Source: Pseudomonadota bacterium (GTDB lineage: Bacteria > Pseudomonadota > Gammaproteobacteria > Burkholderiales > Rhodocyclaceae). Taken from it: DNA of 64,000 bases. The stretch spans positions 1 to 64,000 of the forward strand of contig JAKOTN010000091.1 in NCBI GenBank assembly GCA_029776255.1, in the 5' to 3' direction. Made by a program: the position numbers and the translations under genes. Of this stretch, positions 46,738 to 63,272 are shown in pieces. A model generated the notes under the pieces. It was not told the DNA's origin and made no database searches. It worked only from the letters and a program-made list of their open reading frames with translations. The stretch's first letter is position 1; every line of letters starts with the position of its first letter.

Positions 46738-48231
46738 TTACAGCCCAGCGAGTGCCGCCACCCAGGCCTCGGCGGTAGGGCGGAGCAATTCGAGAACGGG
46801 TCGCGGATACCAACCGATCGCGAGGATCAGCGCGCTTGACGGCAGCAACAGCGCCAGTTCGCGCGGCAGCAGGTCTTCCGCGGTCGCCAGTTCGGGCGAG
46901 GGCGGCCCGAAGAACGCTTGCCGGAAGGGGGCGAGAAACGCGGCGGCGGCGAGGATGGTGCCGAACAGGGCGGCGAGACCGGCGCCGGTGTGACTGTGCA
47001 GCGCGGCGACGACGATCAGCAATTCGGCCGGAAAGCCGCTGGTCCCAGGCAGACCGATGCCAGCCAGGCCGAAGAACAGGAAAAATCCCGACAGCAGCGG
47101 CATGTTGCGCATCGCGCCGCCGAGGCGCGCGATGTCGGTCGATCCGGTTCGGCGCTGCAACAACGCCAGCACCAGGAAAGCGCTTCCCGCGCTGACGCTG
47201 AAGTTGAGCAGCAGCAAGAGTACCCCTTGCAGGGCCGAGACCGAAAAGGTCGACAGTCCGAGCACGACCAGCCCGACGTGCGCCAGACTCAAATACGCCA
47301 GCACGCCGCGCAGATTGCTTTGCGCCAGCGCCGCCACGCCGCCGTAAAGGATGGCCACGGCGCCAACGCCGGCCAGCAGCCAGTGCAGTTCCCGCGCCGC
47401 CAGCGGCGCCAGCGGAATGGCGAAGCGGATCAGGCCGTAAGCCCCGAGTTTGAGTCCGACCAGCAGGGCGGTGATCGCCGCCGGCGCGCCCATGGCCATC
47501 GATGGCAGCCAGGTATGCAGGGGGACCAGCGGTACCTTGACGCCAAAACCCAGCAGCAGCAGCAGGAAGACCGCGTATTGCGCGCCTTCGGGCAAGGGCG
47601 TGGCGAGCAGCGTCGGCAGCGCGAAGACTGGTGCGCCGCCCTTGGCATGCGCGAAAACCAGGGTCAGCATGCCGAGCAGCAGGGGCACCCCGCCGGCGAG
47701 CATGATCAGGAAATAACGCACCGCCGCCGTTTGTCGCCCGCCGCCCGGTCCCCACAGGCTGACCAGCAGATAGAGCGGCACCAGCGTCGCTTCCCAGCAG
47801 AACAGGAACAAAATACCGTCGAGGGCGCAGAAAATTCCCAGCGTCGCCGCTTCTAGCAACAGCAGCAGGGCGAAATACAGTCCGGGCGCCAGCGGCGCGC
47901 CGGTGGCCGTCACCCGCCAGCTGGCCACCACGGCGCCACCGAAAAGCAAGGCGGTGGCGGGCAGGAAGAGCAACGAGATGCCGTCGACGCCGACCCGGTA
48001 AGCGATGTTCAGGCCGCCGATCCAGGTCCCCGCCTCGACCAGCTGGAACGTCGGGTTGCCGGAATCGAAGGCGAGGAGCACCAGCAGCGCGCACAGCAGC
48101 GTCAGCGCGGCGCTGCCGAGCGCGATCCATTGCGCCCATGGCGCCCGCCGGCATGCGGCGGAGAACAGGGCGCCGAAAACGGGCAGCGCCAACAGCACGC
48201 TGAGCAGCGGGTAGTTCGTCAATTCAACCAT
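46738..48231 (-). CDS. NuoM/MrpD-like antiporter subunit, third accessory subunit of the DAB operon
   Basis: 497-residue polytopic proton-translocating subunit (Proton_antipo_M domain). Residues of the proton path are kept: E147 in FCWEATLVP (helix 5), K232 in GFGVKVPLVPLHTWLP (helix 7), K261 in GLKLGAYGLIRF (helix 8) and E403 in GLPGTSGFPAELL (helix 12). The HAQAPT-like loop is altered to MAMGAPAAIT. It is the last gene of the operon, and its start overlaps the preceding stop by 8 bases. No NADH-binding or quinone-site subunits are encoded nearby, so it is not part of complex I. Confidence 0.85.
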   Translation of the reverse strand: MVELTNYPLLSVLLALPVFGALFSAACRRAPWAQWIALGSAALTLLCALLVLLAFDSGNPTFQLVEAGTWIGGLNIAYRVGVDGISLLFLPATALLFGGAVVASWRVTATGAPLAPGLYFALLLLLEAATLGIFCALDGILFLFCWEATLVPLYLLVSLWGPGGGRQTAAVRYFLIMLAGGVPLLLGMLTLVFAHAKGGAPVFALPTLLATPLPEGAQYAVFLLLLLGFGVKVPLVPLHTWLPSMAMGAPAAITALLVGLKLGAYGLIRFAIPLAPLAARELHWLLAGVGAVAILYGGVAALAQSNLRGVLAYLSLAHVGLVVLGLSTFSVSALQGVLLLLLNFSVSAGSAFLVLALLQRRTGSTDIARLGGAMRNMPLLSGFFLFFGLAGIGLPGTSGFPAELLIVVAALHSHTGAGLAALFGTILAAAAFLAPFRQAFFGPPSPELATAEDLLPRELALLLPSSALILAIGWYPRPVLELLRPTAEAWVAALAGL

Positions 48232-49723
48232 GGGAGAAATAGGCCGCCAGGGCCTGCGTTGCCGTGTCGGTGAGCTTCAGCCACGGTTCGGGGTAAAAGC
48301 CGGCGACGAGCAGGACCAGCAGCGTCGTGCCGCCGACGAAATACTCCATGCCGCCGGTCGGCGTGATTCGGGCCGACGGCAGGTCACGCGGCCGCGGCGC
48401 CAGAAAGGCGCGTTGAAAGGCCCAGAGCAGGAAACCGGCGGCGGCGACGTTGCCCAGGGCGGTGGCGATTGTCGGCAAGGCGCCAAAGGTTTCTATCGAT
48501 GCTTCGAGTACCAGATGCACGGCGTCGAAGCCCGGCGTCCCAGGCATGCCGAGAATCGACAGGCCGCCGATCAGGAAGGCGATGGCGATGAATGGCAGGC
48601 GGTCGAACAGGCCGCCGAGCCGGTCGAGATTGGTGGTGCCGGTGCGACGATACACATAGCCGACCATCAGCAGCATCACCGTCGCCGCCAGGCCGAAATT
48701 GACCGCCAGCAGCAGCGCGCCCTGCAAGCCGGCCGGATGCAGGGTGAACAGGCCGATGACGATCAGGCTGGTGTGGCTGACGACGGCGAAAGCCAGCAGG
48801 CGGCGCAGATTGGCTTGCCGGAAGGCGAGCGTCGCGGTGAAGAAGACGCCGACCATGGCGAACGCGACGACATAGGGCTGCCAGACTTTCACCGCTTCGG
48901 CGGTCAGCGGCAGCAAGAAACGCGCCATCCCGTAAATGCCGACCTTGACGCCGAGCAGCAGAACCGGCCCGACGGCGACCAGCCCCTGGCCGGCGGAGTT
49001 TGGCAGCCAGCCGTGCAAGGGAAACAAGGGCGTGCGTACCGCCAGGCCGTAAAACAGCAGGTAGAACGCCACCGACTGGTACTTGCCGATCTGCGGCGTG
49101 CGTAACAGGTCGAACAGATCGAAGGTCCAGCGGCCGCCGGCGACATCGGCCTGACTCCAGACCAGCACCACGGCGCCGGCGACGAACAGACACCAGCCGA
49201 AAAGCTGGTATTGCAGAAAACGCGCCAGAGCCAGACTCTCCTCGCGCAAGGTCGCCCAGCGCCACAGCAGATAAGCGACCAGTCCGAACTGTAGCGCCGA
49301 GGCGCCCGCGAACCACAACAGATTCATCGTCGTCAACATCGTCATCTGCGACGATTCGATGACCAGCAACACGCATAGCAGATGTGCCGGCGTGAGATGC
49401 TGGCGAGCCATGCCGTAAAACGACAGCAGGACGCCGAGCAGGGCGGTGAGCAGGATGAACAGCACGCTGACGCCGTCGACCGCGGTGTGATAGGCGATGA
49501 AATCGGCGCGTTCGGCGAATTGCATCGCGCCGGTGGACACGTCGATGCGCGCGTAAAGATCGATCGCCAGCACCAGTTCGAGCAGCGCGCACAAACGGCC
49601 GAGCGGCAAGGCCAGACTTTTGTCGCGCATCGCCGCCAGCAGCGCCGCCGCCAGCAGCGGCAGCCCTTGCAAGGCCGCCAGCGGCGGATAGCCGGCGAGA
49701 ACGTGCCAGGACACTTCGTTCAT
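48224..49723 (-). CDS. Degenerate NuoM-like subunit of the DAB operon
   Basis: 499-residue polytopic homologue of NuoM. Compared with its two sister subunits, the helix-5 Glu is replaced (WFAGASALQ; G140 at the position), the helix-7 Lys is Arg (R230 in GLAVRTPLFPLHGWLP) and the helix-12 Glu is Val (V402 in GMPGTPGFDAVHLV). Only the helix-8 Lys remains (K260 in LLGVKVGIYGMARF). The reading frame is intact and overlaps both neighbours, so it is maintained, but it may be structural and not pump protons. ATG 49723 overlaps the dabB stop by 4 bases. Confidence 0.8.
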   Translation of the reverse strand: MNEVSWHVLAGYPPLAALQGLPLLAAALLAAMRDKSLALPLGRLCALLELVLAIDLYARIDVSTGAMQFAERADFIAYHTAVDGVSVLFILLTALLGVLLSFYGMARQHLTPAHLLCVLLVIESSQMTMLTTMNLLWFAGASALQFGLVAYLLWRWATLREESLALARFLQYQLFGWCLFVAGAVVLVWSQADVAGGRWTFDLFDLLRTPQIGKYQSVAFYLLFYGLAVRTPLFPLHGWLPNSAGQGLVAVGPVLLLGVKVGIYGMARFLLPLTAEAVKVWQPYVVAFAMVGVFFTATLAFRQANLRRLLAFAVVSHTSLIVIGLFTLHPAGLQGALLLAVNFGLAATVMLLMVGYVYRRTGTTNLDRLGGLFDRLPFIAIAFLIGGLSILGMPGTPGFDAVHLVLEASIETFGALPTIATALGNVAAAGFLLWAFQRAFLAPRPRDLPSARITPTGGMEYFVGGTTLLVLLVAGFYPEPWLKLTDTATQALAAYFSHG

Positions 49724-51273
49724 AGGATCACCACCAGGGTCGCCATCACCATCAGCATCAGATAGCGCGGCTGTTCGAGCAACTGTTCGACGGCGTCGGC
49801 ATAGTTGACCAGGCGCTGCAAGTGTTTCATCAACGCGCCGTCGCCGCTGAGCAGCAAGCGGCTTTCCAGGATTTGCAAGCGGTCGGCGAAGGCGAACAAG
49901 GCGCGCCCGGCCAGCCCGTGACCACGAATCAGCTCGTCCGTTGCCCACTCGTCGCCGCCCGCCTCGTCCGGGCGCGGCGCGCCGACCAAGGGATCGATGA
50001 AACGCTCGTCCAGGGCGCGCGCATCGCGGCCCAGCAACAGGGTTGGGCGTGTCAAAAGGCCGTGCGTCAGCGGCTCGATCCAGAATCGTTGCAGCGCGGC
50101 GGTATACCACCAGCGTCGTCTGGCCAGCCAGTGCGGCACCGGCTTGGCCGGACCGTGCACCAGATGCATGTACGCCGGCGCGAGCAGGAACTGATACGCC
50201 CGCCAGGCGGCGTGCAGGCCGAGGTGGAGGGCCGCCAGCCAGAACAGGCCCAGACCGCAAAACAGGACCATCAGTCCGACCTGGGCGACAGTGGCGAAAA
50301 TCAAGGCCGATTTGACATCGCTTTGCACCAGCGCGCAGAGGCCGCCATAGCACGCGGTCGCCAGGCCGAGCACCGCCAGCAACGTCATCAGGTCCGGCAC
50401 CTGCACCAGCGCGCCTTGCAGGCGGCAGAGCAGATAGACGCCGGCATGCACCAGCAGCGAACCGTAAAAAACCGCCGACGACGGCGTTGGTCCTTCCAGC
50501 GCGCGGGCGATCCACGGCGAGAACGGCAGTTGCGCCGATTTTGTCAGCGCGGCGACCGTGAAACCGATCAGCAGCAGGCGCAGGGTCACCGTGGTCAGGC
50601 TACCGTTGCCGGCCTGCTCGGCCAGACCGGTCCACTCGACGGTGCTCGCCGACCATGTCGCCAGGCCGATGCCAAGCAGGAAGCCGGCGTCGCCGATACG
50701 GTTGGTCAGAAAAACGAACAGTGCGTTGCCGGTGGCCACCGGCCGCTCCCAGGCGTAACCGATCAACAACCACGAGCTGAAACCGGCCAGTTCCCAGCCG
50801 ACGAAAGCCAGCACCGCGTTGCCGGCGAGAACGATCAGCAGCATGCCGGCCAGAAACAGGCACATGCCGAGGAAAAAGCGGCCAAAGCCGCGTTCACGGT
50901 GCAGATAGGTCGCCGAAAAACGTAGCGCGATCCAGGCGATCAGCGCCACCAGCGTCGCGATCGGCAAGCTATAAGCGTCGAGGATGAACGACAGGCGGAC
51001 CGGCACCGCGCCGATGTGCAGCCAGTCGTCGAGGATCGTCACGGCGGCGGCCTCGCGGACGAGCGCCGCCAGATCGAGCACCAGCAACAGCAGCAGCGCG
51101 CCGAGCGCCGCCGCCGTGGCCACGCCCGCCGTCACGGCTTCCTGCGCCTCGCCGTGTCCGCGTAACAGGCGGAACGCGATGGCCAGCGCCGCCAGCAGCG
51201 GCAGCAGCGGCACCAGGGCGACCAGCGGCGGCGTTGCGGCGAGCGCGGCGGCGAAGATGGCGAAGGCGTTCAT
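49720..51273 (-). CDS. dabB: DabB, NuoL-like ion-coupling subunit
   Basis: 517-residue polytopic membrane protein of the NuoL/ND5 type found with DabA. E161 in FVGWELAGFSSWLLIG and K245 in ALTKSAQLPFSPWI match the NuoL proton-path residues. The following GPTPSSAVFYGSLLVHAGVYLL differs from NuoL (SALIHAATMV) in the way seen in DabB proteins as I recall them. The helix-12 Lys is Arg (HAAWRAYQFLLAP). It lacks the long amphipathic helix HL of NuoL. In the DAB system this subunit couples an ion gradient to vectorial CO2 hydration by DabA. The start overlaps the dabA stop by 4 bases. Confidence 0.85.
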   Translation of the reverse strand: MNAFAIFAAALAATPPLVALVPLLPLLAALAIAFRLLRGHGEAQEAVTAGVATAAALGALLLLLVLDLAALVREAAAVTILDDWLHIGAVPVRLSFILDAYSLPIATLVALIAWIALRFSATYLHRERGFGRFFLGMCLFLAGMLLIVLAGNAVLAFVGWELAGFSSWLLIGYAWERPVATGNALFVFLTNRIGDAGFLLGIGLATWSASTVEWTGLAEQAGNGSLTTVTLRLLLIGFTVAALTKSAQLPFSPWIARALEGPTPSSAVFYGSLLVHAGVYLLCRLQGALVQVPDLMTLLAVLGLATACYGGLCALVQSDVKSALIFATVAQVGLMVLFCGLGLFWLAALHLGLHAAWRAYQFLLAPAYMHLVHGPAKPVPHWLARRRWWYTAALQRFWIEPLTHGLLTRPTLLLGRDARALDERFIDPLVGAPRPDEAGGDEWATDELIRGHGLAGRALFAFADRLQILESRLLLSGDGALMKHLQRLVNYADAVEQLLEQPRYLMLMVMATLVVIL

Positions 51274-54200
51274 CGTGTCGCCACCGGGCGCCGCAGCAAG
51301 GCCAGCGGTAGCGCGTCGTCCCGGCCGGCGAACCAGTCGGCCGAGCGTTCGACCTCGGGCAGCGGCGCCGCGTCGGTCTCCGCCCGCCACGCCTGCCAGC
51401 CGACGGCCGGATCGAAGAGATGGATCGCTCCCGAGTCCGGCTCCTGTGCCGCCAGGACGATCCAGCCCTGGCCGATCAACTCGCGCAGCGGTGCTTGCCG
51501 ATGGTAAATCGCGCTGAGAATTTCCGGCGTCTGCTCGACGACGACCAGCAGGCGCATTGCTTCATGGACTTCGATCATCTGTAGTGGCAGACCGGTGCGC
51601 AGATCGGAACTCGCGCCCTGCATGACGCCGAACAAGCCGGCCAGATTGTGCATGACCTTGCTGCCGCAGCCGAAACCCTCGTTGTCGACCGTCGAGAAAT
51701 AGTATTCGAGGCTGATGCCGGCGCCGACCGGGCCGGCGGCCAACAAGGTGCTTTCCAGGATGCTTCCGTCGGCGTCCGGCAGCGGATCGTAGGAAATGAG
51801 AAACACGCGCCGATCGAGAAAGAGGCCGCGGCTCATCGTCCGGCGGCCGACGACCGCGGCGGCGACGGTGGCGTGGCCCAACTCCGGCCGCGCTTGGGCG
51901 AAATCCTGACGGCGGTCGCGCAAATGGTGCAACGCTTGCCGCGGCGAGGGTCTGGTCGGCGCCGAGGCGAAGCGGCGGCAGCGCTCGACGGCATGCAGAC
52001 GCGCCGCCATTTCGCAGTCGCGCTGCAAGGCGGTCACCGCCGCCCGATGGCTGGCCGGGATCGCGTCCGTGTCGTACCAGGCGAAAGTCTCGTCGCAGGT
52101 GTTGTGCTCGACGCTCAGGAAATACGTGGCGTCGGGAATGCGCAGCCCTTGTGCGCCCAGACGCGCGCGCACCGCCGGGCGGTTGGCCATCGCCGCGAAA
52201 ACACGGGCGTTGGGACCGCCGTGGCGACCGGAACAGGCGCCGCAATCGTAAGCCGCCAGATGCGGGTTGTTGCGGCTGTCCGAGCCGTGCCCGACGATCA
52301 CCACCAAGGGCGCGAAATGCTCGGTCAGGCCGATGCCGCGCAGGAAAGCGCCGACGCGCGCCGCCTGCTCGTCCTCGCTGAAGCCGCGACGCGGCGCCTC
52401 GGCGCTCGCCGGACGACGCGCCTCTTCCGCCGTGGCGGTCAAGTGCAGCGTGCTGGGCACGAGGGTATCGAAGGCTTGGCGGCGACGCGCCAGCCAGTCG
52501 CCGAAGCGTCCCGGCGTCAGCGTGCGCGCCAGCAGAACCAGCAGGGCCAGCGGCGCGGCGGCGGCGTTGAGCATCGCTGCCCGCAAACCGCCCCGTCGCG
52601 TGCCCTGGTGCAGGCGTTCCTGCCATGCCAGGCGCCAGCGCCGTCGCCGCCGGTGACGGTCGCCGGCCGCTTCGGCATTCGCCGGCACGGTTTCATGGAC
52701 GGTATTCTCCGGTCGCACCACCACCGGGCACAGCGCGGTCGGCGCGTCGTCGTCGAGTCCTTGCCAGAGCATCGGCACGCCGTAAAAGCCGGCGGCGCCA
52801 AAGGTTTCGTAGGTCGGGTTGACTTCTTCGAGGTGGCGGCGGGTGCCTTCCTCGCGATCATCCATGCACAGCACCAGTTGCGCGCTGGCACGTCCCGCCA
52901 GCGGCCGCGCGCGACGGTGGTTGGCGGTCAGCGCCGCGAAGAGTTGTTGTCGGTAATGATGTTCGTAAGCCAGCAGCCACAGCAGGCCTCGCTGCTCGTC
53001 GCTCGGCGAGTCGGCGCAACGCCGCATGGTTTCGGCGCCGGCGCGGCCGATGGCGCGTAATTCGCGTCCGCACAGCCCCAGATCGCGGGCGAGGACGAAC
53101 AGCGGCCAGGCGTCCGACGATGCGCGGTCGCCGGATGCCGCGCTGGCGCGAAGCGCCGCCGCCAGGCGGGTCGCCAACTGTCGCCAGATGTCACCATCGT
53201 CGTTGGTCGGCTCGCCAAGGTGGGCTTGCAGCCATTCGAGCGCGTGGTCGGGAAGCCGGCGATCGCTGTGGGCGTCGCGGGCCACAAGTTCCGCCGGCCG
53301 GGTGACGAAGTAGTCGCCGAGCGTTTGCAGCGGCAGCGAAACGCCCCATAGACGGCGGAGCAGGCGTTCGGCGTGCAGTCTTTCGAGAACGAGCCGCACG
53401 GCGAGAAAATCGACCAGCGCCACCGGCGGATCGCCGGCTTCGGGGCGGGATTGGCGCCGATGGAACATGCCGGCCCAGCCGGGAAGTTCCAGCGCCAGCC
53501 GGCGCAGGCAGGGCGCCCAGTCGCTTTCGGCGATGCCCAGCCGCCGCAACTCGCCGACCATCGCCGGTAGCGGCTCGTCGGGCAATTGCTCGACTTCATG
53601 CCGCGCGCCGGGGAATTCGTCGAATTCCCATCCCCAGTCCTGGCCGGCGCTGTGGCGCCAGGCAGCGTAGAAGCCGTGTTCGCGCGCCGGGTTCCGCCAG
53701 GCCGCCAGACCCTGGTCGAGATGGGCGGCGAGGTGACGGATCAACATCGTCCGCAGCGCCGGCCGAAAATCCTCGCCGGAAAGATGCCGCAGCAGTTCCG
53801 CCGGGGTCCACGTCTCGCCCAGGCGGGCGAGCAGTTCTTGCCAAAGCGCGGCTGCCGCCTCGGCCGTGGGCGCGGCCAGGGTTTCGGCGAGGGGCGCCGG
53901 TTCGTCGACGCGCTCGGGAGCCAGATCCCGCGCCGCCGCCCACAGGTCGGCGACGGCCGCGCGCTCGTCGAGTCCGTCGGCCGCGGCGGCGCGCAGCAGG
54001 CGTTGCCGCGCACGTGGCTCCATGTCGTCGGGCAGCTTGGCGAACACGGCCCGTTCCTCGGCCAGCCAGCGCAGACGGGTCGGCGTGACGCTTTCCGGCG
54101 CGTGCAGCAGCGCCGCCCGCAGCACGTCGCCGCGGCGCAGTTCGAAATCGTCGCCGTCGAGCAGCGCGTCGTCGGCGCGCAGGGCTGGCAGTTGTCGCAG

Positions 54201-54485
54201 CGCCGCGTCGAGATCGGCGGTGGTGATCCGTCCGGCCTGGAACAGTTCGCGGCAGCGTTGCGGCGCCAGCCAGGGCCGCGCGCCGCCAAGGCGCGACGCT
54301 TCGGTCAACGCGGTGGCGAAAGGCAGATGCTGGTACGCGTGCAAGGTGTTGTGATGAACGAAGTCGCGCAAGGGCGCTTGCGCGGGCAGGACATGCGCCA
54401 GTTCGTCCAGGCAGGCCTGGACGCGCGCCAGCGGGTCGTTGCTCGCGCGGCCGGCTGTCGAAGAGACGGAATGCGGCGGACTCAC
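51270..54485 (-). CDS. dabA: DabA (DUF2309), zinc subunit of the inorganic-carbon accumulation complex
   Basis: 1071-residue peripheral protein of the DUF2309/UPF0753 family. In Halothiobacillus DabA forms with DabB an energy-coupled, carbonic-anhydrase-like pump that accumulates bicarbonate. The N-terminal motif DFVHHNTLHAYQHLPF is present. The predicted zinc ligands are C540 and D542 (LCMDDREEGTRRH) and H733 and C748 (GHGSDSRNNPHLAAYDCGACSG). The His-to-Cys distance of 15 residues is that of the known site. The protein belongs to the longer class of the family. GTG 54485 immediately follows the upstream stop (TGAGTG). Confidence 0.92.
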   Translation of the reverse strand: MSPPHSVSSTAGRASNDPLARVQACLDELAHVLPAQAPLRDFVHHNTLHAYQHLPFATALTEASRLGGARPWLAPQRCRELFQAGRITTADLDAALRQLPALRADDALLDGDDFELRRGDVLRAALLHAPESVTPTRLRWLAEERAVFAKLPDDMEPRARQRLLRAAAADGLDERAAVADLWAAARDLAPERVDEPAPLAETLAAPTAEAAAALWQELLARLGETWTPAELLRHLSGEDFRPALRTMLIRHLAAHLDQGLAAWRNPAREHGFYAAWRHSAGQDWGWEFDEFPGARHEVEQLPDEPLPAMVGELRRLGIAESDWAPCLRRLALELPGWAGMFHRRQSRPEAGDPPVALVDFLAVRLVLERLHAERLLRRLWGVSLPLQTLGDYFVTRPAELVARDAHSDRRLPDHALEWLQAHLGEPTNDDGDIWRQLATRLAAALRASAASGDRASSDAWPLFVLARDLGLCGRELRAIGRAGAETMRRCADSPSDEQRGLLWLLAYEHHYRQQLFAALTANHRRARPLAGRASAQLVLCMDDREEGTRRHLEEVNPTYETFGAAGFYGVPMLWQGLDDDAPTALCPVVVRPENTVHETVPANAEAAGDRHRRRRRWRLAWQERLHQGTRRGGLRAAMLNAAAAPLALLVLLARTLTPGRFGDWLARRRQAFDTLVPSTLHLTATAEEARRPASAEAPRRGFSEDEQAARVGAFLRGIGLTEHFAPLVVIVGHGSDSRNNPHLAAYDCGACSGRHGGPNARVFAAMANRPAVRARLGAQGLRIPDATYFLSVEHNTCDETFAWYDTDAIPASHRAAVTALQRDCEMAARLHAVERCRRFASAPTRPSPRQALHHLRDRRQDFAQARPELGHATVAAAVVGRRTMSRGLFLDRRVFLISYDPLPDADGSILESTLLAAGPVGAGISLEYYFSTVDNEGFGCGSKVMHNLAGLFGVMQGASSDLRTGLPLQMIEVHEAMRLLVVVEQTPEILSAIYHRQAPLRELIGQGWIVLAAQEPDSGAIHLFDPAVGWQAWRAETDAAPLPEVERSADWFAGRDDALPLALLRRPVATR

Positions 54486-55958
54486 TCAGCCCCCGAAATG
54501 ATGCGCCAGCCGGCTTACCGACGAGGCCAGGATGTCGAGCAGCGGCGCCGGGTAGAAGCCCATGCCGACGATGCCGGCCGCCAGCAAGCCGGCGGCGGCG
54601 ATTTCGTTGCGGTCGAGATCGGCGAAGGCCGCCACGCCGGCCGGCGTGCCGCCAAAGGGACGTTCGGGACCGGTCGACAGGCAGCGGATGGCGCGCAGGG
54701 CGTAGGCGGCGGTGATCAGCATGCCGAGCGACACCAGCGCCAACCAGCCGCCCCAGCGGCCATAGGCGCCGATCAGCACATGCAGTTCGGCGATGAAACC
54801 GGCGCTTCCCGGCAGGCCGACCGCCGCCAGCAGGGTGAAGATCAGGAAGGCCGCGAAGCGCGGCGCCACCCGGTTCAGCGACCCGTAAACCGCCAGGTCG
54901 CGAGTGTGCGTGCGCTCGTAGAGCAGGCCGATCAGCAGGAACAACAGGCCGGCGACCAGTCCGTGCGCGACCATCTGCATCAGCGCGCCGTTGAGTCCGG
55001 CCTTGTTGAGCGCGGCGATCCCGAGCAGGACGATGCCCATGTGCGAGATCGACGAATAGGCGATCATCGCCTTCAGGTCGGTTTGCCGCCAGGCCAGCAC
55101 CGCGCCGTGGAGCAGGCTCAGCAAGGCCAGACCCGCCAGCCAGTCCTGCAAGTTCAGTGCCGCCGCAGGCAAGGTGCCGGCGGCGCGGATCAAGCCGTAA
55201 GCGCCCATTTTCAGCAGGATGCCGGAAAGCAGGATCGAAATCGGGCTCGGCGCCTCGACGTGCGCCAGCGGTAGCCAGCCGTGCAAGGGCACGATCGGCA
55301 TCTTGACGCCGAAGCCGATCAGCAGGCCGACGAAGATCAGCGTCTGCGTCCGCAGCGGCAGTTGCGCGCCGCCTTCGGCCATGTCATTCATCGCGAAACT
55401 ATGCCCCGGCGCCACGTCGTAAAGCAGCAGCAGCGCGATGAGCATGAATACCGAACCGCCCAGGGTGTAAAGCACGAAATTGAGCGCCGCGCGGTGACGA
55501 TTGGCGCCGCCGAGACGATCGATCAGAAAAAACAGCGGAATCAGCGTCAGTTCCCAGCAGACGTAGAACAGCGACCAGTCGCGGGCGGTGAACACGATCA
55601 GCAAGGCGGTTTCGAGAACCAGCAGCAGAAAGAAATAGAGTTTGGCGCCGTTGCGAATCCCTTGCGAGGAAAAAATGGCGACAAAACAGAGCACGGTGGC
55701 CAGCAGGACCATCGGCAGCGAAACGCCGTCCACCCCGAGCGCCAGATTGGAACCGAGCCGGGGATTCCAGGGGCGGGTTTCAAAAAACTGGATTTCGGCG
55801 CTTGTCGGATCGAAATCGGCCAGCAGCAGACAGGCGCAGACGACGGTCGCGGCGGCGATCGCGCTGGCCGAACGGCGCAACAGGTCCACGCGGCGACTGG
55901 GCAGCAGCAGCAGCAGCAGGGCGCCGAAAAGCGGCAGCAGGAGCAGGATTTTCAGCAT
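54486..55958 (-). CDS. NuoM-like antiporter subunit, first gene of the DAB operon
   Basis: 490-residue polytopic subunit and the closest of the set to true NuoM. All four proton-path residues are present: E136 in [10 protein letters not shown]219 in [17 protein letters not shown]250 in [12 protein letters not shown] and E391 in [15 protein letters not shown]. The loop [16 protein letters not shown] retains the HVEAPS motif. It is placed before dabA, whose GTG start abuts its stop. There is no clear Shine-Dalgarno before ATG 55958; a structured leader lies just upstream. It is unlikely to be a complex I remnant because no other nuo gene is present. Confidence 0.86.
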
Positions 55959-55980
55959 CGTTGGCGAGGGAAGCGGGGCA

Positions 55981-56021
55981 GAAAAAGGAGCCCCCCGGAA
56001 ATACTCTTTTTCATCGGGGGC
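55981..56021 (-). promoter_or_regulatory. Structured leader of the DAB operon with pseudoknot topology
   Basis: On the minus strand the order is GCCCCCG, GAAAAAGAG, CGGGGGGC, CTCCTTTTTC. The first pairs with the third (GC-only) and the second with the fourth (9 bp with one bulged C). The pairings interlock, so they form either an H-type pseudoknot or two exclusive hairpins. The element ends 22 bases before the first start codon. Confidence 0.5.
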
Positions 56022-59837: not shown

Positions 59838-60005
59838 TTGTGCCGCGCAAGGCTGTGTATTGACAGACAATTTCAAGTTGGCAATTTTTACATTGTTCGA
59901 GGCGTATAGGGTAATGGCTTTCTTGCCCGCAACTTTTTACCATGGGCGTCCTTGTGCAATTTCCTGGTAACCGGAACATTTCCGATTTCGTGGAGACCGA
60001 ACCTC

Positions 60006-63000
60006 ATGACCGACCTTTCCATCGCCAAAAAGCTCTCGCCCTACAAGCCGAAGAACAAGGTGCGTTTCGTCACCGCCGCCTCGCTGTTCGACGGGCATGA
60101 CGCGTCGATCAACATCATGCGCCGCATTTTGCAATCGACCGGCGCCGAAGTGATTCACCTCGGGCACAACCGTTCGGTGCAGGAGATCGTCAATGCGGCG
60201 TTGCAGGAAGACGTGCAGGGGATCGCCATCACCTCGTACCAGGGCGGGCATGTCGAATTCTTCAAGTACATGATCGATCTCCTGAAAGCCGGTGGCGGCG
60301 AAAACATTCAGGTGTTCGGCGGCGGCGGCGGCGTGATCGTCCCCAGCGAAATCGAGGAATTGCATGCCTACGGCGTGACACGGGTCTACTCGCCGGAGGA
60401 CGGCCAGTCAATGGGGCTGCAGGGCATGATCAACGAGGTGGTGGCCAAGTCCGATGTCGATCTGTCAACGCTGGCGCCAAGCGAGCCGGAGGCCGTTCTG
60501 GCGGCGCTGAAGGCCGGCGACCGGCGTAAACTGGCGCAAATCATCACTGCCCTGGAAAACGGCGTTTATCCGGAAGCGCTGCGCAAGAAAATCGTGCATG
60601 CCGCCGCCGCGCTGAAGGTGCCGACGCTGGGCATCACCGGCACCGGCGGCGCTGGAAAATCCTCGTTGACCGACGAACTGGTGCGCCGTTTCCGGCTCGA
60701 TCAGGGGGACAGCCTCAAGTTGGCGATCGTTTCCATCGATCCGTCGCGCAAGCGCACGGGCGGCGCGCTGCTTGGCGACCGCATCCGCATGAACGCCATC
60801 GAGCACCCGCGAATCTTCATGCGCTCGCTGGCGACGCGCGATACGGGTTCGGAACTCTCCAGCGCCTTGCCGGAAGTGATCGCCGCCTGCAAACTGGCCG
60901 GCTTCGATTTCGTGATCGTCGAAACCTCGGGCATCGGTCAGGGCAATGCGGCGATCGTGCCGCTGGTCGACGTCTCGCTGTATGTGATGACTCCCGAATT
61001 CGGCGCCGCTTCGCAGCTGGAAAAGATCGACATGCTCGACTTCGCCGACTTCGTGGCGATCAACAAATTCGACCGCAAGGGCGCCGACGATGCGCTACGC
61101 GATGTCCGCAAGCAGTATCAGCGCAACCATGAAGCTTTCTCGCAAAGCCCCGACGAAATGCCGGTTTTCGGCACCATGGCCGCGCGCTTCAACGACGACG
61201 GTGTCACCGCGCTCTATCAGGCCATCGCGCACAAGCTCGGCGCGCTTGGCCTGAAGCTGAAAAAAGGCAAGTTGCCGACGATCGGCGTCCGGCAGTCGTC
61301 GAACCAGCGGGCCATCGTCCCGGCGCAACGCGTGCGCTACCTGGCCGAGATCGCCGAAGCGGTTCGCGGCTACCACGCCCACACCGCCGAACAGGCCGAA
61401 ATCGCCCGCGAGCGGCAGTCGCTGCGCATCGCCAAGACGCTTTTTCAAGCCCGTGGCAAGGCCGCCGGCGACTTCGACGAAATGGTCGCCTGGAAGGATT
61501 CGCAACTCGACGCGCGGGCGAAAAAGCTGCTCGACATGTGGCCGAAAACCGTCGAGCTGTACGCGCAGGACGAGTACGTGGTCAAAATCCGGGACAAGGA
61601 AATCCGTACCCGGCTGACCAACAGCTCGCTGTCCGGCTCGCGCATCCGCAAGGTGTCGCTGCCGACCTACCGGGACGACGGCGAAGTGTTGCGTTTCCTG
61701 ATGAGGGAAAACATCCCCGGCTCCTTCCCGTTCACCGCCGGCGTCTTCGCCTTCAAGCGCGAAAACGAGGACCCGACGCGGATGTTCGCCGGCGAGGGCG
61801 ATGCCTTCCGCACCAACCGGCGCTTCAAGCGGGTTTCCGAGGGAATGCCCGCCAAGCGGCTGTCGACCGCCTTCGATTCCGTGACCCTCTACGGTTGCGA
61901 CCCGGACGCGCGGCCGGACATTTACGGCAAGGTCGGCAATTCCGGCGTCTCGATCGCCACGCTCGACGACATGAAAGTGCTGTTCGACGGCTTCGAACTG
62001 TGCGCGCCGACCACCTCCGTCTCGCTGACCATCAACGGCCCGGCGCCGATCATTCTGTCGATGTTCTTCAACACCGCCATCGACCAGCAGATCGACAAGT
62101 TCCGCGTCGACAACGGCCGCGATCCGACCGAGGACGAAATCCAGAAAATCCGCACCTGGGTACTGGCCAACGTGCGCGGGACGGTACAGGCCGACATCCT
62201 GAAAGAGGATCAAGGCCAGAACACCTGCATCTTCTCCACCGAATTCGCGCTCAAGATGATGGGCGACATCCAGGAATTCTTCGTCCACAACAACATCGGC
62301 AACTTCTACTCGGTATCGATTTCCGGCTATCACATCGCCGAAGCCGGCGCCAACCCGATCTCGCAACTGGCCTTCACCCTGGCCAACGGTTTCACCTACG
62401 TCGAAGCCTATCTGGCGCGCGGCATGCATATCGACGATTTCGCGCCCAACCTGTCGTTCTTCTTCAGCAACGGCATGGACCCGGAATACTCGGTCATCGG
62501 TCGCGTCGCCCGTCGCATCTGGGCGGTGGCGATGAAGAACAAGTACGGCGCCAACGAACGCAGCCAGAAACTGAAGTACCACATTCAGACCTCCGGCCGC
62601 TCGCTCCACGCCCAGGAAATGGCCTTCAACGACATCCGCACCACCTTGCAGGCGCTGATCGCCATCTACGACAACTGCAATTCGCTGCACACCAACGCCT
62701 ACGACGAGGCGATCACCACCCCGACCGAGGAATCGGTGCGCCGCGCCATGGCCATCCAGTTGATCATCAACCGCGAATGGGGCCTGGCGATGAACGAAAA
62801 CCCCAACCAAGGCTCGTTCATCATCGACGAACTCACCGATCTGGTCGAGGAAGCGGTGCTCAAGGAATTCGAGGCCATCGCCTCGCGCGGCGGCGTGCTC
62901 GGCGCCATGGAAACCGGCTACCAGCGCGGCAAGATTCAGGAGGAATCGCTGTATTACGAGCACAAGAAACACGACGGCTCGTTCCCGATCGTCGGCGTCA

Positions 63001-63272
63001 ACACCTTCCGCAATCCGCAGGGCGACGCGCAGGTCGAGATCGAACTGGCCCGGTCGACCGACGAGGAGAAACGATCGCAACTCAATCGCCTGCAAGCGTT
63101 CCAGCAACGCAATGCCGGCGAATCGGCGGCGATGCTTGAGCGCCTGAAACAAACCGTGATCGATAACGGCAACGTTTTCGCGGTCCTGATTGACGCCGTC
63201 CGGCTGTGTTCGCTGGGACAGATCACCACCGCGCTTTACGATGTCGGTGGCCAATACCGGCGCAGCATGTAA
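60006..63272 (+). CDS. icmF: Fused isobutyryl-CoA mutase IcmF
   Basis: 1088-residue adenosylcobalamin enzyme that interconverts isobutyryl-CoA and butyryl-CoA and carries its own G-protein chaperone. The B12-binding domain is N-terminal, with the lower ligand H31 in [12 protein letters not shown]. The MeaI-type GTPase domain has Walker [10 protein letters not shown] (212-220) and NKFD. The mutase barrel follows. F594 (RMFAGEG) and Q738 (GQNTCIF) align with the two substrate residues that mark isobutyryl-CoA specificity; their spacing of 144 equals that in characterised IcmF, and the pivalyl-CoA variants differ here. ATG 60006 is chosen over a GTG or ATG 54 bases earlier. No B12 riboswitch was recognised upstream. 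Confidence 0.96.

What the first reader, a model, noticed from the sequence alone, without database searches (positions are those of the whole stretch)
46738..56021. Expanded DAB inorganic-carbon operon with four antiporter-like subunits
The characterised DAB system needs DabA (DUF2309) and one NuoL-like DabB. Here five genes overlap or abut in one operon: NuoM-like, dabA, NuoL-like dabB, NuoM-like, NuoM-like. DabA keeps the zinc ligand pattern C540/D542/H733/C748, and no complex I dehydrogenase or quinone subunits are present. This suggests a larger, Mrp-like multi-antiporter base driving DabA, which could translocate several ions per CO2 hydrated. The architecture is seen directly; the function is inferred from DAB work in Halothiobacillus and from complex I homology.
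Basis: partly seen in the sequence, partly recalled or inferred. Interest (0 to 1): 0.9.

Follow-up and report, generated by a model that had tools for sequence, protein, structure and literature searches.

The report
Five-part proton-driven carbon dioxide trap
This is a conserved five-gene version of a bacterial machine that is thought to use the proton gradient to turn carbon dioxide into bicarbonate; it carries three extra complex-I-like membrane proteins and a different set of key residues from the studied two-part machine, so it may run on a different coupling scheme.

Summary
The five genes are real: minus strand, NuoM-like (M1), dabA, dabB (L), NuoM-like (M2), NuoM-like (M3), overlapping or abutting, in a Candidatus Accumulibacter relative. 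It is no local oddity: of 122 loci with this DabA type, 95 show M1>A>L>M2>M3 and 18 more are cut by contig ends. Natural fusions (M1-DabA in one genome, DabB-M2 in four) tie the extra subunits to DabA/DabB. M1, M2 and M3 are each one clade on the NuoM branch, not Mrp. M1 and M3 keep four NuoM channel residues; M2 has lost three, so four working channels is unlikely. Against DAB2-like and carboxysome-linked DAB1-like systems this class has His for Leu at the catalytic transition-state position (124/124 vs 0/59), lacks the finger Glu essential in DAB2 (0/124 vs 59/59), and its DabB keeps a complex-I Glu (103/104 vs 0/59). These switches map to one branch, and a basal relative has them without M1/M3 being found. 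The gene neighbourhood, and the idea that more membrane genes move more ions, were printed in 2017; I found no print of the switches or fusions. Multi-proton drive remains inferred.

The parts
54486..55958 (-). M1, NuoM-like subunit (490 aa); TM5 Glu, TM7 Lys, TM8 Lys and TM12 Glu kept
51270..54485 (-). dabA (1071 aa, GTG start); C540/H733/C748 zinc site, D542-R544 dyad, H871 at the transition-state position, no finger Glu
49720..51273 (-). dabB (517 aa, ATG in ATGA overlap with dabA); NuoL-like over its first three quarters; NuoL E144/R175/D178/K229 equivalents kept
48224..49723 (-). M2, degenerate NuoM-like subunit (499 aa from the ATG in ATGA overlap with dabB); lacks TM5 Glu and TM12 Glu, Arg for TM7 Lys
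46738..48231 (-). M3, NuoM-like subunit (497 aa); TM5 Glu, TM7 Lys, TM8 Lys and TM12 Glu kept

Best explanation
A vectorial carbonic anhydrase of the DAB/DAC family in a five-subunit form. Cytoplasmic DabA hydrates CO2 to bicarbonate at a beta-CA-like zinc site. DabB holds DabA's hydrophobic hairpin in the membrane. M2, a worn-out NuoM, is a structural neighbour of DabB. M1 and M3, intact NuoM-type channels, let protons in down the proton-motive force and pass the push sideways along the charged axis to DabB, whose complex-I-type Glu/Arg/Asp/Lys pairs are kept, and so to DabA. In this class the push no longer goes through a Glu in DabA's finger, as in DAB2, but through neighbouring antiporter subunits. 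Shown: gene content, order, fusions, clades, residue patterns. Inferred: that the five form one complex, who sits next to whom, the direction, the proton path, and more than one proton per CO2.
For: Order M1>A>L>M2>M3 in 95 of 122 loci, 88 of 113 after removal of repeated DabA. One ORF holds M1 and DabA in Ca. Competibacter phosphatis; one ORF holds DabB and M2 in L149, L154, L165 and L167. In two genomes with dabA elsewhere, the four membrane genes stay together as M1>M3>L>M2, the second one's M1 cut by its contig start. In a tree with 11 loci of each, M1, M2, M3 and L are each one side of a starred branch; M2 and M3 are sisters. Distance correlations among the five subunits are 0.82-0.92 over 87 complete loci. 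All four NuoM channel residues are kept in 105/105 M1 and in M3 (89/89 for three of them, 86 with three gapped for TM12 Glu). DabB TM5 Glu: 103/104 here, 0/29 DAB2-like, 0/30 DAB1-like; finger Glu: 0/124 here, 29/29 and 30/30 elsewhere. In DAB2 the finger Glu is essential, and putting Glu at DabB I151 halves growth yield (PMC13144422 section 11).
Against: No experiment. Basal relative L076 (genome G316) already has the class's DabA residues and, by eye, the DabB Glu, with only A>L and a diverged 433-aa antiporter-like gene; no M1-type protein was found in that genome, so the switch does not need M1/M3, unless they were lost or missed. The residue switches map to one branch of the DabA tree, so the association counts as one event. 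The AlphaFold model of a natural DabB-M2 fusion does not fix how the halves sit (pTM 0.58). Eleven of 124 have Asp at the finger position. Distance correlations are confounded with species history.
Confidence: 0.5

Rival explanations
1. One complex, but M1, M2 and M3 are scaffold or regulatory parts and only DabB conducts, so the proton cost per CO2 is as in DAB2.
For: M2 is plainly degenerate; L076 appears to do with fewer subunits.
Against: M1 and M3 keep the channel residues across divergent lineages (105/105; 86 of 86 scored for the least complete column), unlikely if they did not conduct; the finger Glu of DabA is lost.
Confidence: 0.2
2. Same five-part complex, but run on sodium or as a bicarbonate-coupled transporter, as was proposed for MpsAB.
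For: MpsAB was proposed to be a sodium/bicarbonate symporter (PMC13144422 sections 4 and 11).
Against: The extra subunits are NuoM-type, with no Mrp small subunits; DAB2 itself kept full activity without sodium.
Confidence: 0.12
3. The machine runs the other way: a downhill reaction such as CO2 hydration pumps ions out (the 2017 proposal was an exergonic reaction driving a pump).
For: Proposed for ybcC operons in PMC5700660. The His at the transition-state position could make DabA active without a membrane push (inference).
Against: DAB2 accumulates inorganic carbon and is sensitive to an uncoupler (PMC13144422 section 4).
Confidence: 0.08
4. Two separate machines in one operon: a DabA-DabB pair and a separate M1-M2-M3 antiporter.
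For: In G157 and G161 dabA lies on another contig.
Against: There dabB stays with M1-M3, not with dabA; fusions M1-DabA and DabB-M2 cross the supposed border; dabB sits between dabA and M2.
Confidence: 0.07

Closest known systems
DAB2 of Halothiobacillus neapolitanus (DabA2-DabB2; cryo-EM 9rd0, PMC13144422)
   Same: PF10070 DabA with the same zinc ligands and Asp-Arg dyad; NuoL-like DabB with a changed C-terminal part; hydrophobic hairpin in DabA at the finger's place.
   Different: Two genes and no extra antiporters; DabA2 870 aa in the PDB entry; finger Glu444, Leu658 and Ser356 in DabA2 versus no Glu, His871 and Glu545 here; DabB2 Ile151 versus Glu here; DabB2 His260 and Lys347 (matched through NuoL numbering offsets) are Tyr and Arg here.
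DAB1-like, carboxysome-linked systems (label by resemblance: long DabA, gap after dabB, CsoSCA in the genome)
   Same: Long DabA (about 1040-1100 aa in most); sister clade of the window's DabA class.
   Different: dabB, a gap, then dabA; no extra antiporters on that strand; all 30 have the DAB2-type residues Glu (finger), Leu and Ser.
'Clade C' ybcC (COG3002) neighbourhoods with COG1008 NuoM, COGNAT 2017 (PMC5700660)
   Same: ybcC/dabA upstream of the nuoL homologue with extra NuoM genes; authors suggested that the number of membrane genes might set the number of ions.
   Different: No fusions, residue comparison or carbonic anhydrase assignment in the passages I read; the supplementary tree was not read.
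Respiratory complex I membrane arm (NuoL, NuoM, NuoN)
   Same: M1 and M3 have the NuoM residue set; DabB has the NuoL TM5 Glu, Arg175, Asp178 and TM7 Lys equivalents.
   Different: The operon holds only four antiporter-like genes and dabA; no dehydrogenase or quinone part.
Cyanobacterial NDH-1MS CO2-uptake complex
   Same: CO2 hydration coupled to a complex with antiporter-like subunits (subunit make-up recalled; coupling from PMC13144422 section 4).
   Different: There the drive is ferredoxin oxidation; here no electron-transfer subunit is in the operon.

Membership tests
DAB/DAC vectorial carbonic anhydrase | PF10070 DabA next to a PF00361 NuoL-like DabB | tested here: met
DAB/DAC vectorial carbonic anhydrase | Zinc site Cys-His-Cys with Asp-Arg dyad | tested here: met
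   C540, H733, C748 124/124; D542 and R544 123/124
DAB/DAC vectorial carbonic anhydrase | Finger hairpin in DabA with the essential Glu444 of DAB2 | tested here: not met
   Hairpin predicted (helices 602-628 and 634-656); Glu absent in 124/124. Shown essential in DAB2; not known to define the whole family
DAB/DAC vectorial carbonic anhydrase | Uncoupler-sensitive CO2 accumulation, rescue of a CA-less E. coli | not testable with these tools
   bench test
DAB2 subtype | Leu at the transition-state position and Ser after Arg355 | tested here: not met
   His and Glu in 124/124; Leu and Ser in 29/29 DAB2-like
COGNAT clade C | dabA upstream of dabB plus NuoM gene(s) | tested here: met
   whether the window's sequences fall in that published clade was not tested
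Mrp antiporter | MrpA/MrpD-type large subunits plus small subunits | tested here: not met
   Large subunits fall with NuoM and NuoL; the five genes abut or overlap, leaving no room for small subunits between them
Complex I | Dehydrogenase and quinone modules | tested here: not met
   Operon holds only the five genes; NuoL, M and N-type genes are elsewhere, on contig C117

The most novel reading that the evidence does not exclude
The five-gene class is a third, mechanistically distinct kind of proton-driven carbonic anhydrase: an active site with His in the transition-state place instead of Leu, no finger Glu, and a complex-I-like lateral charge relay from two intact NuoM channels through DabB's Glu/Arg/Asp/Lys pairs, so that two or three protons drive each CO2 and the enzyme can work at a low membrane potential or low CO2.
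Probability: 0.35. Interest if true: 0.78.

Novelty: new variant of a known kind. Interest (0 to 1): 0.62.

Why it matters
How complex-I-like subunits pass energy sideways is a long-standing question, and here nature seems to have tied such subunits to a simple, electron-free reaction. If the relay is real, the five-gene DAB would let coupling be tested without NADH or quinone, against a two-subunit relative with a solved structure, and the swapped residues name the mutants to make. Among the Pseudomonadota sequences compared, DabA falls into three clades, two of which (DAB1-like, DAB2-like) share one residue set, so results from DAB2 should not be carried over to this one. Carriers include Accumulibacter, Nitrosomonas and Nitrosospira, Methylobacter and Methylomonas, Thiothrix and Magnetococcales (record titles). 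Only 2 of 33 five-type genomes fetched from the phylum sample have a PF00016 (RuBisCO family) match (several genomes are incomplete and many are of a few families), so it may supply bicarbonate to other carboxylations as well as to the Calvin cycle.

Tried and rejected
Mrp-like base: rejected by the tree and the lack of room for small subunits. Length of DabA as the mark of the class: rejected, since DAB1-like DabA are as long but have DAB2 residues and no extra genes on their strand. Link to RuBisCO or carboxysomes: not supported; 2 of 33 five-type genomes (32 fetched from the phylum sample plus the window's own; read off by eye) have a PF00016 match, and of the 55 DabA match rows in 67 carboxysome-bearing genomes (some rows fragments) the 41 DabA that I read in 40 loci were 30 DAB1-like and 11 DAB2-like, none of the five-gene type. 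Placing M2 against DabB by folding a natural fusion: a first alignment put the M2 rows on the DabB half; with 10 DabB and 26 M2 rows the halves were good but pTM was 0.58, so no arrangement can be read. Foldseek found no PDB match for the DabA model at E <= 0.001; the DAB2 entries are probably newer than that copy. Third gene of L076 as M2: not supported, no hit to the M2 profile, 33 and 31 bits to M1 and M3. Literature: ten searches; nothing in the listings or passages seen reported the residue switches or fusions, but only open-licence papers are held, and the 2019 Halothiobacillus study and the COGNAT supplement were not read.

Rows dropped before the residue counts: subunit matches under set scores (M1 480, L 300, M2 240, M3 330 bits) and identical sequences. 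One search lists those under the score: 29 rows. Most are pieces at contig ends or split ORFs, or antiporters of other loci; the one near-full-length DabB among them is that of L076. The five-type DabA group itself was set by score with the window's DabA (over 500 bits), not by neighbours.
Full report
What is there. On the minus strand of the window, between an acylphosphatase-like gene and gltX (names of these two by eye), five genes follow without gaps: M1 54486-55958, dabA 51270-54485, dabB 49720-51273, M2 48224-49723, M3 46738-48231. M1's stop abuts the dabA start, dabA/dabB and dabB/M2 share ATGA, M2 and M3 overlap by 8 nt. Pfam and NCBIfam name them NuoM, DabA, NuoL-like, NuoM, NuoM. The genome is a relative of Candidatus Accumulibacter, judged from the named contigs most similar to the window's DabA (63-67% identity). 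It also has NuoL, M and N-type genes on C117, an MrpA/MnhB-type locus on C1, and an antiporter pair beside a complex-I-49-kDa-like protein on C22, a PF00016 RuBisCO-family match and a beta-class carbonic anhydrase match.

How common it is. PF10070 was found in 69 of 398 genomes drawn from the phylum and in 27 of 41 relatives. DabA scoring over 500 bits with the window's DabA was called 'five-type'; 122 loci hold one by the count, the window included. Of these, 95 carry M1>A>L>M2>M3 in that order; counting each repeated DabA once, 88 of 113. Two more loci (one contig seen twice) have M2 in two pieces, and Thiothrix L173 has M1>A>L>A>L>M2>M3. Of the remaining 24, 18 are cut by a contig end (contig ranges). 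The other six: L080 and L089 (genomes G157, G161) have dabA alone, with M1>M3>L>M2 together on another contig (in G161 the contig begins inside M1); L149, L154 and L165 are split or shuffled; L156 has M1 fused to DabA near a contig end. A seventh case, L076 (genome G316), missed the score cut but is in the DabA residue counts and groups with five-type in the tree: it has A>L followed by a diverged 433-aa antiporter-like protein, and no M1-type protein was found in its genome. The 18 other loci of the first 60 have shorter DabA, dabB before dabA, and no extra antiporter match in the stretch held.

Do the extra subunits belong? Four lines. First, order. Second, natural fusions: M1 (71-549) and DabA (564-1668) in one 1673-aa ORF of Ca. 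Competibacter phosphatis; DabB and M2 in one ORF of about 1010-1090 aa in L149, L154, L165 and L167. The four DabB-M2 fusions are much alike (70-83% identity) and may be one event; the M1-DabA fusion is seen once. Third, a tree of 65 rows (11 loci for each of M1, M2, M3 and L, 12 short-class DabB, 9 references; IQ-TREE quick search): each of the five groups is one side of a starred branch; M2 and M3 are sisters (96); all three lie with NuoM, and DabB of both classes with NuoL. Fourth, pairwise distances of the five subunits over 87 complete loci correlate at 0.82-0.92, though shared species history would give some of this.

Residues. In 105 M1 and 89 M3 sequences that passed score cuts, TM5 Glu, TM7 Lys and TM8 Lys are invariant; TM12 Glu is present in 105/105 M1 and 86 of 89 M3, three being gapped. 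M2 (96) has no TM5 Glu (95 scored, one gapped), Arg for the TM7 Lys (95, one gapped), keeps TM8 Lys, and has no TM12 Glu (mostly Val or Ala), with an invariant His next to that place. DabB of this class keeps the NuoL TM5 Glu (103/104, Lys in one), Arg175, Asp178 and TM7 Lys equivalents (104/104 each) (E. coli numbering from the sequences). So the operon encodes two intact NuoM-type channels, one degenerate copy, and a NuoL-like half-channel; that M2 is inactive is inferred.

The sharp difference from DAB2. The DAB2 cryo-EM paper (PMC13144422; abstract and sections 4, 8, 11, 12 read) names zinc ligands C351, H524, C539, the D353-R355 dyad, Leu658 at the place of the transition-state residue of beta-CAs, and finger Glu444, whose replacement abolishes activity; DabB2 has Ile151 where NuoL has Glu144, and putting Glu there halves growth yield. 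I mapped these by the alignment and by MAFFT alignments. Zinc ligands and dyad are shared by all classes. But Leu658 is His871 in 124/124 five-type DabA; Ser356 is Glu545 in 124/124; the finger Glu is absent in 124/124 (Asp in 11). In 18 short-class DabA all three are Leu, Ser, Glu. These 124 rows include repeats; 115 aligned rows are distinct.

Control with DAB1. To ask whether this merely follows DabA length, I searched 369 genomes of the class for the carboxysomal anhydrase CsoSCA (67 hits), then those 67 for DabA (37 hits), and fetched 40 loci. Thirty hold a long DabA behind dabB with no extra antiporter on that strand; one of these, L280, has complex-I-like NuoM and NuoL matches on the opposite strand some kilobases away. 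By comparing positions, 20 of the 30 lie within about 12 kb of CsoSCA; the other 10 lie on other contigs or far off. I call them DAB1-like by resemblance; the Halothiobacillus DAB1 sequence itself was not compared. Eleven DabA are DAB2-like. All 30 DAB1-like and all 29 DAB2-like have Leu, Ser and finger Glu; none of 30 and none of 29 has the DabB Glu (DAB1-like: His in 23). A tree of 58 DabA puts the three classes apart, five-type sister to DAB1-like (96), L076 at the base of five-type. So the switches and the five-gene plan go together but count as one evolutionary event, and L076 shows that the switches do not strictly need M1 and M3.

Structure. AlphaFold2 of the window's DabA: mean pLDDT 88.5, pTM 0.90, with helices at 602-628 and 634-656 in the finger region. 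The DabB-M2 natural fusion: pLDDT 82.4, pTM 0.58; its best PDB matches are NuoM chains over about 490-510 columns (TM-score about 0.9 of the target), and good-rmsd NuoL matches span about 355 columns (that these are the M2 and DabB halves is my reading). The relative placement is not resolved.

How it most likely works. Shown: parts, order, fusions, residue sets. Inferred: DabA, DabB and M1-M3 form one membrane arm; protons entering through M1 and M3 push a complex-I-like charge relay to DabB and DabA; CO2 is hydrated one way. By my own arithmetic a proton-motive force of 150 mV gives about a 350-fold bicarbonate gradient per proton, so two or three protons per CO2 would be far more than a normal cell needs; the gain would be speed, or work at low membrane potential. 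That is a reason for doubt as well as for interest.

What is already known. COGcollator 2.0 (PMC13399641, passages), the 2024 toolkit review (PMC10880623, passages) and a Leptospirillum operon paper (PMC9080137, passages) do not go further in what I read. I found no account of the fusions, the M2 decay, or the residue switches in ten searches of an open-licence library (listed in Tried and rejected).

Noticed in passing
L060, L064, L066, L068, L127: One or two further antiporter-like ORFs (73-116 bits to M1) lie about 2-6 kb upstream of M1 in several relatives; in the window's genome similar-scoring proteins sit on contig C22 beside a complex-I-49-kDa-like gene (L214), so another membrane complex may neighbour DAB there.
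   Followed up: partly
L173:8448-23096: Thiothrix MAG with the dabA-dabB pair repeated inside the operon: M1>A>L>A>L>M2>M3.
   Followed up: no
L076:110-5719: Basal relative with A>L and a diverged 433-aa antiporter-like third gene; it has the five-type DabA residues and, by eye, the DabB Glu, while no M1-type protein was found in its genome.
   Followed up: partly
L149, L154, L165, L167, L156: Competibacter, Contendobacter and one unnamed Pseudomonadota record have split, shuffled or fused versions of the operon (DabB-M2 and M1-DabA fusions).
   Followed up: yes
L257-L286: DAB1-like DabB carries mostly His (23 of 30) at the NuoL TM5 Glu position and Arg (28 of 30) for the TM7 Lys: a second departure from the complex I pattern.
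   Followed up: no
L257:8139-19499: One genome holds a DAB2-like and a DAB1-like pair side by side.
   Followed up: no
window:38921-45026 and 59952-63272: By eye only: a type II secretion or MSHA pilus-like gene set (GspE/GspF-like, secretin-like) and a fused methylmalonyl-CoA mutase-type protein (IcmF-like).
   Followed up: no
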